A stretch of DNA of 59,172 nucleotides from the NCBI GenBank assembly GCA_017553445.1, contig JAFZMD010000076.1, forward strand, positions 1-59,172. Direction: 5' to 3'. The notes beneath the pieces are model-generated. The model searched no databases and was not told the DNA's origin. It saw nothing but the letters and a program-made list of their open reading frames with translations. The stretch is from Methanobrevibacter sp. GTDB lineage: Archaea; Methanobacteriota; Methanobacteria; Methanobacteriales; Methanobacteriaceae. A program made the translations under genes and the position numbers. Positions 27,529 to 30,284 of this stretch are shown in pieces. Position 1 is the first letter of the stretch; each line of letters begins with the position of its first letter.

Positions 27529-28893
27529 ATGGAAAAGAAAAATTTAATCCTTTTAATCTGTACAGTATTGTCATTTTTCACAGTTTTTGCAGTTAATGCA
27601 GTCATGGTTGTCATTCCAACCATAGCCGGCGAATTTCATATGAGCAATATTGTTCAGAATTGGATTACGATTATTTTTCTTTTGGTCGTTGCGGTAATGT
27701 CCGTTCCGGCAGGCCAGATTTCTGGAAAATACGGCCTTAAAAAAGTCACGATTTTAAGCATTATTCTTTTTATTATAATTTCCGTTGTAAATGTCTTGGT
27801 AACATCTGCAGAAGAGTTTTTAGCATGCCGTTTTGTTTTGGGAATAGCGTTATCATTTATCAATGTTACTTCCATGGCAATGGTGGTTTCTGCATTTAAC
27901 CCGGAAGAGAGAGGAAAGGCTTTGGGAATTAACATTACTGGAGTCTACATTGGTTTATCATTGTCCCCTGTCCTTGGAGGAATCCTCAATTACCAGCTGG
28001 GCTGGAGGGCAGTGGTATTGTTTGGAGTTCCATTTCTGTTTGTAATATTGGCATTGCTTTTAACGAAAATCGACGAGGAATGGGTTACTTTTGAAAACAT
28101 TCCCCTTGATATTAAAGGATCTGTTGCCTATGGAATAGGTATGGTACTGTTCATGTATGGCTTTACAATACTTAATAGCCTGTCTGGTGTGGTATTGACG
28201 GTTTTGGGTATAATAATATTAATCGTATTCGGATTAATAGAGCTGAGAGAGCCTAATCCGGTTTTTGATATAAGATTTTTCAAAAACCGTAAATTTTTAT
28301 CTTCTAATTTCGCTTCATTGTGTGCTTATCTGGCAACTTTTGCAGTTACGACAATTCTAAATTATCATCTGCAGTATATTAAAGGTTTTAATTCACAGTC
28401 TGCAGGTATAATCCTGCTAGTTGCACCCTTATGCCAAGTTGTTCTCGCCCCGATAGCCGGAAGATTATCCGATAGGTATGTTCCGCAAATCCTTGCAGCT
28501 ATTGGAATGGCATTGGGTACGATTTCACTAATTTTATTTTCATTTTTAGGCAGTGAAACGCCCCTTGAGTTTTTAATCGTATCAATGATAATATACGGTG
28601 TCGCTTTCGGACTGTTCTCCCCGCCAAATACGAATGTCATAATGAGTTCGGTTCCTCCAAAAGACACTTCGGTTGCATCTGCTGCAGTATCAACCATGCG
28701 TACCGTTGGCCAGGCAATGAGTATTGGAATATTAACATTGGTATTTGCATTTGTAATGGGTAATGTCGAGATTGTTGAGCAAAATTATCCGTTATTGATA
28801 AGCAGCTGCCAGATAACTTGCATTATTTGTGTGGTGTTATGTATAGCATCTGTATTTGCTTCACTCGTTGGAATTAAATCTGGTGATGTTTAG
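27529..28893 (+). CDS. MFS multidrug exporter of the EmrB/QacA type
   Basis: A 454-residue membrane protein with about 13-14 hydrophobic helices. The motif after helix 2 is GQISGKYGLKKV, and the drug:H+ antiporter-type motif C is recognisable as GVYIGLSLSPVLGGIL near 140-155. GRLSDRYVPQ is the repeat in the second half. The substrate is not predictable. No clear ribosome binding site is seen, and the short 24-base gap after the glycosylase gene contains ATATAAATTAA, so either leaderless expression or readthrough is possible. Confidence 0.85.
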   Translation: MEKKNLILLICTVLSFFTVFAVNAVMVVIPTIAGEFHMSNIVQNWITIIFLLVVAVMSVPAGQISGKYGLKKVTILSIILFIIISVVNVLVTSAEEFLACRFVLGIALSFINVTSMAMVVSAFNPEERGKALGINITGVYIGLSLSPVLGGILNYQLGWRAVVLFGVPFLFVILALLLTKIDEEWVTFENIPLDIKGSVAYGIGMVLFMYGFTILNSLSGVVLTVLGIIILIVFGLIELREPNPVFDIRFFKNRKFLSSNFASLCAYLATFAVTTILNYHLQYIKGFNSQSAGIILLVAPLCQVVLAPIAGRLSDRYVPQILAAIGMALGTISLILFSFLGSETPLEFLIVSMIIYGVAFGLFSPPNTNVIMSSVPPKDTSVASAAVSTMRTVGQAMSIGILTLVFAFVMGNVEIVEQNYPLLISSCQITCIICVVLCIASVFASLVGIKSGDV

Positions 28894-28903
28894 TATCAAT
28901 ATT

Positions 28904-29300
28904 TTACAATTCATATGGTGGAGATTTTTTCAGCGCATCTAATGATTCTAATGCTTTTTCAGATTCATTTTTTGCTTGAATTAAACTCTTTTCATAATAT
29001 TCACCATCTTTTGTTAACCAGTCATAATCTGCCTGGTTTCTGATTTCTCTTAATTGTTCTAATATCTCTCCGATTTCATTTTCTGTTAAATCATTAGATT
29101 TCATTAATTCTTCGCACACTTCTTTATGAATATTTTTTCTTTTCAAAAAAATATTTTTTGTTCTTTGTTTCAACTAAATATTGTCTAGTTGAGCAAAATA
29201 TTGAATAGTAATACCTTCCAATTGCTGATCGGGTAAATGATTCCTCTTTATGTGCAGATAACACATCCCCCACTTTTGAAAATTTTTTAAAATCAAACAT
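28904..29300 (-). pseudogene. HEPN-domain (UPF0332-like) gene interrupted by a frameshift
   Basis: From ATG 29300 the minus strand encodes about 58 residues beginning MFDFKKFSKVGDVLSAHKEE and including RSAIGRYYYSIFCSTRQYL, a typical HEPN helix, then stops. The adjacent frame continues from about 29125 downward with IHKEVCEELMKSNDLTE and the family motif REIRNQADYDW, ending at 28904. Skipping one base in the A/T homopolymers between about 29125 and 29150 joins the two into one HEPN protein of about 131 residues. The start overlaps the upstream gene's stop by eight bases. It could be a true pseudogene, phase variation, programmed +1 shifting or a homopolymer sequencing error. Confidence 0.75.
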
Positions 29301-29688
29301 TTAAGACACCCGGCATTATCAATAATTCCCTAAAAAGATTCATTTTTCTTTTTAATGGATATATTTCTCTTCTAAGAGCTCTGATTTCGTCTCCAATTCC
29401 ATTTTTATATCTTTCGTAATCGACATTGATTATAAGGACTAGTTTTTCATAGTCAATTATTTCGGGGTCATGGCTCACATATAATTCATATTCTCCGTTT
29501 GCAAAATCCTTTTTTAAGTGAGGTTTTAAAGCATCTAGCAATATTAAAATTCCAGGATTTTTTTGTATGAATTTATGGATTTCCTTTTTGGATGTTAATG
29601 TATAGCAATTTTCTAATTGATTAAATTTATCTTCAAATAACTTTTTATCATTGTTTAATTCTTCTTTATACTTTAATTCATTAGTCAT
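29293..29688 (-). CDS. Uncharacterised small protein, operon partner of the HEPN gene
   Basis: A 131-residue protein: a charged N-terminal helix, a middle part with SKKEIHKFIQKNPGILILL, then a beta-rich GEYELYVSHDPEIIDYEKLV segment and a basic C-terminal helix (ALRREIYPLKRKMNLF). It lacks the GSxARG-type nucleotidyltransferase signature expected of the usual MNT antitoxin of HEPN pairs. The ATG follows GAGGAATTAAA. The eight-base overlap with the HEPN start implies translational coupling, so an antitoxin-like role is suggested by position only. Confidence 0.65.
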   Translation of the reverse strand: MTNELKYKEELNNDKKLFEDKFNQLENCYTLTSKKEIHKFIQKNPGILILLDALKPHLKKDFANGEYELYVSHDPEIIDYEKLVLIINVDYERYKNGIGDEIRALRREIYPLKRKMNLFRELLIMPGVLNV

Positions 29689-29834
29689 TTTAATTCCTCA
29701 TAATTATATATTCTTTAATCATTTAAAAAACTTTTTATTTTATCCTATACAATATTCTAAGCCTATATGACTATTTTAATGGCGAGGTTATATTGTTTGA
29801 ATTTGGAAAAATTTAAAATGATGGTATGGTGTTA

Positions 29835-29860
29835 AAAGATAGTTTAAGTCAACTATCTTT
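29835..29860 (-). terminator. Hairpin at the end of the cyclophilin gene
   Basis: AAAGATAGTT (29835-29844) and AACTATCTTT (29851-29860) form a 10-bp stem with a six-base loop. The cyclophilin stop codon (29853-29855) is inside the stem. The downstream tract is only moderately T-rich. Confidence 0.5.
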
Positions 29861-30284
29861 CTTCAACATATACTTTATTCATTTTGTCTCCTTGCTGGAT
29901 TGCATCTACAACGTCCTGGCCTTTAATTACTTGACCGAATACGGTATGCACTCCATCTAAGTGAGGTTGTGGTGAGTGTGTAATAAAGAATTGGCTTCCG
30001 CCAGTGTCTTTACCTGCATGTGCCATTGATAAAGCACCTGTACCGTGTTTGTGTGGGTTTCCTTCGGTTTCACATTTGATGGTGTAACCTGGGCCTCCGG
30101 TACCGTTTCCATTAGGACATCCGCCTTGAATTACAAAGTCTGGTATTACTCTGTGGAAGGTTAATCCATCATAAAATCCTTCATTAATTAACTTTTCGAA
30201 GTTAGCTACAGTACCTGGAGCTTCGTTTGGGAATAATTCCAATTCAATATTTCCTTTATCAGTTTCAATTATTGCGACTTTCAT
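29853..30284 (-). CDS. Cyclophilin-type peptidyl-prolyl cis-trans isomerase
   Basis: A 143-residue cytoplasmic cyclophilin. The core motif [25 protein letters not shown] contains the catalytic arginine, and [21 protein letters not shown] forms the substrate groove. No signal peptide. GGTGATTAA precedes the ATG. It is transcribed alone, divergent from argD, and its stop codon sits in a hairpin. Confidence 0.95.

What the first reader, a model, noticed from the sequence alone, without database searches (positions are those of the whole stretch)
28904..29688. Frameshifted HEPN gene coupled to an unfamiliar partner
Two minus-strand frames together encode one complete HEPN (UPF0332-like) protein. 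Helix RSAIGRYYYSIFCSTRQYL lies in one frame, REIRNQADYDW in the next, and a single extra base in A6/T7/A4/A6 homopolymers separates them. The HEPN start overlaps by eight bases the stop of a 131-residue gene that is not the usual MNT nucleotidyltransferase antitoxin. The pair looks like a toxin-antitoxin-type module with a non-standard partner, where the HEPN half is inactivated, phase-variable or expressed by +1 shifting.
Basis: partly seen in the sequence, partly recalled or inferred. Interest (0 to 1): 0.6.

Follow-up and report, generated by a model that had tools for sequence, protein, structure and literature searches.

The report
Broken HEPN toxin beside unnamed antitoxin
A gut methanogen carries a two-gene cassette, a small gene of an unnamed family overlapping an RNA-cutting HEPN gene, that recurs in archaea and many bacteria and looks like a toxin-antitoxin pair; in this genome the toxin gene is knocked out by a frameshift.

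Summary
Two minus-strand frames (29300-29124 and 29173-28904) together encode one HEPN protein; the HEPN start overlaps the stop of a 131-aa gene (29688-29293) by 8 nt. The pair is real: it recurs in Methanobacteriaceae with the HEPN in a single frame, and the 8-nt overlap is kept in 11 distinct loci. A HEPN-only scan of 85,000 species (plus two cyanobacterial plasmid loci) found the partner next to the HEPN in 73 of 82 loci: 21 of 21 archaeal, 52 of 61 bacterial. The partner fits no Pfam, NCBIfam or PADLOC family, is not a nucleotidyltransferase, and has no confident PDB fold match. The HEPN lacks Rx4-6H but keeps the Tyr/His/Arg set reported as catalytic in the type IX retron HEPN. Best reading: a type II-like toxin-antitoxin or defence cassette with an undescribed antitoxin family, at a variable ppiB-MFS site that is empty in eight relatives. 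The window copy has an inactivated toxin. HEPN-broken/partner-intact outnumbers the reverse 12 to 1, as expected if HEPN is the toxin. Programmed or phase-variable shifting is not supported. Toxicity, neutralisation and target are untested.

The parts
29293..29688 (-). Partner gene, 131 aa, intact; predicted antitoxin of an unnamed family (alpha-helical N-terminus followed by an alpha-beta-beta-alpha-alpha-beta domain with a DPE-containing hairpin)
   Evidence: Open frame; homologues in 50 of 139 family genomes; no Pfam, NCBIfam or PADLOC match; AlphaFold model pLDDT 94.7
29695..29699 (-). Possible ribosome-binding site (GAGGA) upstream of the partner ATG
   Evidence: Read directly in the sequence; inference only
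29293..29300 (-). 8-nt overlap of partner stop and HEPN start (ATGTTTGA), suggesting translational coupling
   Evidence: Same -8 geometry in 11 distinct loci; -4 in 9 others
29124..29300 (-). HEPN N-terminal frame, 58 aa, with conserved R24, R29 and Y30-Y32, ending at an early stop
   Evidence: family conservation
28904..29173 (-). HEPN C-terminal frame (open 89 aa) with the conserved H58 and R87..A90-D91-Y92
29124..29173 (-). Interval in which the single-base frame change must lie (A6, T7, A6 runs)
   Evidence: Both frames open here; runs listed
29853..30284 (-). ppiB-like peptidyl-prolyl isomerase, one border of the variable site
   Evidence: Up to 97% identical orthologues with the site empty or occupied
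27529..28893 (+). MFS transporter, other border of the variable site (convergent)
   Evidence: Match begins within 27-93 bp of ppiB in eight relatives that lack the pair

Best explanation
The locus is a mobile two-gene toxin-antitoxin or defence cassette. The second gene encodes a small HEPN ribonuclease toxin of the HEPN-T type that lacks Rx4-6H and uses a split active site (Tyr cluster, His in helix 3, Arg in helix 4). The first, translationally coupled gene encodes a cognate antitoxin of an undescribed, non-nucleotidyltransferase family, which most likely binds the HEPN protein directly and keeps it off RNA. In this genome a one-base frame change between the Tyr cluster and His58 puts the active-site residues in two different frames, so neither frame holds all of them: the toxin is inactivated and the antitoxin remains. 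Shown: pairing, residue conservation, frame change, variable site. Inferred: RNase activity, toxicity, neutralisation by binding, defence role.
For: The pair recurs in Methanobacteriaceae with the HEPN in one frame. A HEPN-only scan plus two plasmid loci found the partner adjacent in 73 of 82 loci, including 52 of 61 bacterial ones; a profile holding only archaeal and two Gloeothece partners already gave 72 of 82, and archaeal and bacterial partner profiles align (E = 1.1e-13). Overlapping start/stop is conserved. HEPN residues R26, R31, Y33, Y34, R87 and Y92 (profile numbering) are invariant in 77 relatives, D91 is kept in 76 and H58 in 75; they correspond to Y40-42, H64 and R122 of retron-Kva2 HEPN, where H64A, R122A and Y40-42A abolish defence (PMC13405049). 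The predicted HEPN fold matches the HEPN toxin of an MNT-HEPN pair (probability 1.00, TM 0.61). Decay is lopsided: 12 loci with HEPN broken and partner intact against 1 the other way, although the genes are about equally long (sign test p = 0.003). In a Chloroflexi locus the partner domain is fused to an Xre-type HTH (PF01381, E = 4.6e-14), an antitoxin-like architecture. Mobility: the ppiB-MFS site is empty in eight relatives and holds diverged pairs in six others; pairs also lie on cyanobacterial plasmids and a viral contig.
Against: No experiment shows toxicity or neutralisation. The partner's mode of action cannot be read from sequence or fold (no confident PDB match). The sign test treats lesions as independent and most genomes are fragmented assemblies; one further partner-broken locus of a more divergent type (L214) would make it 12:2 (p = 0.013). 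Orphan partners exist (e.g. L006, L015, L173, L180), so some may have other roles. Only one HTH fusion was found, and the RHH-like N-termini in Cyanobacteria were not confirmed by Pfam. A sequencing or assembly error at this one site cannot be excluded.
Confidence: 0.72

Rival explanations
1. The frame change is a sequencing or assembly error and the organism has an intact, ordinary pair.
For: The genome is a 94-contig draft; the shift lies among A6/T7/A6 runs; no raw reads or second assembly of the species were available.
Against: The window's other long ORFs hold 101 A/T runs of 6 or more without obvious breakage, and 52 ORFs cover 92% of the window. HEPN, not the partner, is recurrently broken in other genomes, including near-complete ones (G036, G117).
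Confidence: 0.2
2. The HEPN is made by programmed +1 frameshifting or switched by slipped-strand phase variation.
For: Homopolymer runs sit at the junction, and runs of 6 or more are denser in this gene than in the window average (5 in 397 bp, Poisson p = 0.008).
Against: Intact relatives read the region in one frame; lesions elsewhere are at different positions and include a nonsense codon. Runs of 6-7 are short for phase variation (general knowledge).
Confidence: 0.06
3. The pair is not a toxin-antitoxin but a sensor-effector defence or regulatory unit in which the partner activates or targets the HEPN, as retron parts do for the type IX HEPN.
For: The closest characterised HEPN is a retron effector held inside a defence complex. 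The partner's C-terminal half has the helix-strand order of type II KH-like domains, with weak hits to ribosomal S3 and RbfA, so RNA binding is conceivable.
Against: Only two genes fill the otherwise empty site, with no third component seen. The HEPN decays while the partner stays, and there is an HTH fusion, both antitoxin-like. Fold hits are not significant and no GXXG is conserved.
Confidence: 0.2
4. It is a decayed MNT-HEPN (HepT/MntA) pair with a degenerate nucleotidyltransferase.
For: Same gene order, sizes and HEPN fold as MNT-HEPN (PMC3710099).
Against: No GS..DxD motif in the partner; no nucleotidyltransferase match for 42 archaeal partners in Pfam or 34 bacterial ones in PADLOC, Pfam and NCBIfam; no nucleotidyltransferase among the top 50 PDB fold matches. 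A neighbour with a clear GS..DxD motif beside a HEPN exists in another genome (L225) and looks quite different.
Confidence: 0.04

Closest known systems
MNT-HEPN (MntA-HepT) toxin-antitoxin systems; PADLOC candidate PDC-M05
   Same: Two small overlapping genes, HEPN usually second, HEPN fold, patchy mobile distribution
   Different: Partner is not a nucleotidyltransferase; HEPN lacks Rx4-6H and has a conserved His elsewhere
Type IX retron HEPN effector (retron-Kva2, PDB 36ht; PADLOC HEPN_IX)
   Same: Sequence relatives (E = 4.5e-6 by profile; HEPN_IX E = 1.9e-9) with the same Tyr cluster, His and Arg reported to be catalytic
   Different: The retron operon has a reverse transcriptase, ncRNA and winged-helix protein; here there is a single small partner
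HEPN-T family (PF05168) with Asp replacing His (Anantharaman et al. 2013, PMC3710099)
   Same: R..D-Y motif with a conserved His elsewhere, as that survey noted
   Different: The survey passages read here do not describe this partner; Pfam detects only some members, and the window protein falls below its cutoff
MAE_18760 HEPN-ParA/Soj dyad (PMC3710099)
   Same: Precedent for a HEPN toxin with a non-MNT partner
   Different: That partner is an ATPase; this one is a protein of about 110-150 aa without known domains

Membership tests
MNT-HEPN toxin-antitoxin | Antitoxin is a minimal nucleotidyltransferase (GS..DxD) | tested here: not met
   No motif in the sequence; no family match; no NTase among the top 50 fold matches
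MNT-HEPN toxin-antitoxin | HEPN carries Rx4-6H | tested here: not met
   R87 is followed by N-x-A-D-Y, no His; R87, D91 and Y92 are kept in 76-77 of 77 relatives
HEPN superfamily (HEPN-T type) | HEPN helical-bundle fold | tested here: met
   Model of an intact relative, pLDDT 94.5; top PDB HEPN chains probability 0.97-1.00, TM 0.54-0.61 (E-values 0.09 and above)
HEPN superfamily (HEPN-T type) | Pfam PF05168 above the gathering score | tested here: not met
   Joined window protein 14.1 bits against 22; 8 of 32 rows of A2 reach E of 0.01 or better, best 2.4e-6
Type IX retron | HEPN with catalytic Tyr cluster, His64 and Arg122 | tested here: met
   Corresponding residues conserved in 75-77 of 77 relatives; activity itself untested
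Type IX retron | Reverse transcriptase, ncRNA and winged-helix gene in the operon | tested here: not met
   Only the pair lies between ppiB and the MFS gene here, and pair-sized inserts in relatives; no dedicated RT profile search was run
Type II toxin-antitoxin module | Two small co-directional, overlapping or adjacent genes conserved as a pair | tested here: met
   73 of 82 HEPN loci; overlaps of 8 or 4 nt common
Type II toxin-antitoxin module | Mobile, patchy distribution | tested here: met
   Empty versus occupied orthologous site; plasmid and viral contig copies
Type II toxin-antitoxin module | Toxin arrests growth and the partner protein neutralises it | not testable with these tools
   Indirect only: decay asymmetry 12:1 and one HTH fusion

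The most novel reading that the evidence does not exclude
A widespread, unnamed HEPN toxin-antitoxin system in archaea and several bacterial phyla, in which a split-active-site HEPN RNase is neutralised by a new antitoxin family through binding rather than nucleotidylation, and which may share its toxin ancestry with the type IX retron effector.
Probability: 0.55. Interest if true: 0.65.

Novelty: new variant of a known kind. Interest (0 to 1): 0.5.

Why it matters
HEPN proteins lacking Rx4-6H have been a puzzle: a 2013 survey (PMC3710099) noted that some are toxic without a visible active site. This family ties such proteins to the residues recently reported as catalytic in a retron effector, and supplies a simple two-gene setting in archaea and bacteria where toxicity and neutralisation can be tested. 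It also defines a protein family that current annotation misses: in the Gloeothece plasmid records its members are called hypothetical protein.

Tried and rejected
Programmed or phase-variable frameshifting: rejected as the main reading (no conserved shift site, short runs). Degenerate MNT partner: rejected on motif, profile and fold. PDC-M05: reported to be nucleotidyltransferase plus HEPN (PMC12988326), so not this pair. Partner fold: PDB and viral structure searches gave no match at E of 0.001 or better; the weak S3/RbfA (KH-like) similarity is kept only as a hint. Partner alignment A1 was too divergent for a contig scan, so the HEPN was used. Phage records gave no HEPN match. Literature searches for a HEPN with this kind of partner found none, but the library lacks most subscription journals. 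No second assembly of the species was available to check the frame change.

Full report
Observation. On the minus strand a 131-aa frame (29688-29293) is followed, with an 8-nt overlap, by a 58-aa frame (29300-29124); a second frame in the next register is open from 29173 to 28904. Both pieces match consecutive parts of one HEPN profile (1-51 and 46-126), and the distance from the Tyr cluster to the conserved His equals that of intact relatives once the frames are joined.

The pair elsewhere. The window lies in a 94-contig draft, 91% complete; the closest named relatives of this HEPN group in the species-wide scan are Methanobrevibacter. Neither gene has another detectable copy in this assembly. 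In 139 genomes of the same family, 50 hold the partner and 73 a HEPN relative. Where both occur they are neighbours, usually partner first, sometimes HEPN first, with tandem partners in some loci. The 8-nt overlap is kept in 11 distinct loci and a 4-nt overlap in 9.

A scan of one genome per species with a HEPN pattern only gave 80 loci. With two Gloeothece plasmid loci this makes 82, and a partner sits next to the HEPN in 73: 21 of 21 archaeal and 52 of 61 bacterial. A partner profile that held only archaeal and two Gloeothece sequences already found a partner in 72 of 82 loci. Archaeal and bacterial partner alignments match by profile comparison (E = 1.1e-13). Hosts include Cyanobacteria, Chloroflexota, Planctomycetota and Acidobacteriota.

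The HEPN. Pfam sees it weakly, but PADLOC's HEPN_IX model matches (18 of 22 relatives). A profile search of the PDB gives Retron-Kva2 HEPN at E = 4.5e-6. The intact relative's model is a confident helical bundle whose best PDB matches are HEPN proteins, led by the HEPN toxin of an MNT-HEPN pair. No Rx4-6H exists. Instead R26, R31, Y33, Y34, R87 and Y92 are invariant in 77 near-full-length relatives, D91 is kept in 76 and H58 in 75. These correspond to Y40-42, H64 and R122 of retron-Kva2, which a 2026 preprint reports as the active site, with mutants losing defence (PMC13405049). The 2013 HEPN survey had noted that HEPN-T proteins with Asp in place of His keep a His elsewhere (PMC3710099). In the window the frame change separates the Tyr cluster from His58 and Arg87, so neither frame holds the full set.

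The partner. It matches nothing in Pfam, NCBIfam or PADLOC; its archaeal relatives give only scattered weak Pfam hits, and among the bacterial ones no family is shared by more than one member, the clear Pfam case being one HTH domain. Its model is confident (pLDDT 94.7) but has no significant PDB or viral match. The C-terminal half has the helix-strand-strand-helix-helix-strand order of type II KH-like folds, and ribosomal S3 and RbfA appear among weak hits; this is a hint only. It has no nucleotidyltransferase motif. In a Chloroflexi locus (L124) the same domain follows an Xre-type HTH (PF01381, E = 4.6e-14); several cyanobacterial copies have an N-terminus that looks ribbon-helix-helix-like by eye but not by Pfam.

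Which half is the toxin. In Methanobacteriaceae, 12 loci have a broken or remnant HEPN beside an intact partner (this window, G076, G072, G034, G078, G081, G021, G018, G036, G049, G040, G117) and one the reverse (G100); four have both broken. HEPN hits in the same genomes were also checked, to limit ascertainment bias. Lesions differ in position and type. The genes are about equally long, so random error should hit both alike; a sign test gives p = 0.003 (0.013 if one more divergent partner-broken locus is counted). This is what a toxin decaying beside its antitoxin would show. It does not prove toxicity.

Mobility. The genes flanking the pair are a ppiB-like isomerase and a convergent MFS transporter. 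In eight relatives the two are 27-93 bp apart with no gene between; in six others the same place holds a diverged partner-HEPN pair (one with a broken HEPN), and one has a partner-like gene alone. A viral contig and cyanobacterial plasmids also carry the pair. The closest partner to the window's own (46% identity, G084) lies on a different contig from that genome's ppiB, so the cassette at this site has probably been exchanged rather than inherited in place.

Is the frame change real? The window's long ORFs hold 101 A/T runs of six or more, all compatible with open frames, and 52 ORFs cover 92% of the window. That argues against general homopolymer error but cannot exclude one at this site. 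I put 20% on error.

Conclusion. A type II-like HEPN toxin-antitoxin or defence cassette with an undescribed antitoxin family, whose toxin is inactivated in this genome. As a HEPN pair it is a new variant of a known kind. The mechanism (direct inhibition of an RNase) is inferred.

Noticed in passing
27529-30284: The ppiB-MFS intergenic site is a variable cassette site: empty in eight Methanobacteriaceae relatives, holding diverged partner-HEPN pairs in six others (L236, L237, L241, L246, L248, L249).
   Followed up: partly
L124:2369-2998: Chloroflexi partner fused to an N-terminal Xre-type HTH domain (PF01381), directly upstream of HEPN.
   Followed up: yes
L106, L108, L126, L134: Cyanobacterial partners carry an N-terminal segment that resembles a ribbon-helix-helix domain by eye; Pfam does not confirm it.
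   Followed up: partly
L005, L024, L029, L030, L093, L129: Tandem partner genes around one HEPN (partner-partner-HEPN or partner-HEPN-partner).
   Followed up: no
L243, L237, L249, L051, L099: Partners at the ppiB site and some other loci share an N-terminal motif like QRLEMQIPxENxYTG, absent from the window's partner.
   Followed up: no
L026 and similar long hits (G048:C23, G094:C53, G095:C27): Longer partner relatives of 200-248 aa with a C-terminal extension; no HEPN was seen next to L026, the only one of these examined for a neighbouring HEPN.
   Followed up: no
L262:2538-3357: A 24-kb IMG/VR viral contig carries an intact partner-HEPN pair.
   Followed up: partly
L225:1174-1868: A likely genuine MNT-HEPN pair (GSVARN..SDID motif beside a HEPN) in another Methanobacteriaceae genome, for contrast.
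   Followed up: no
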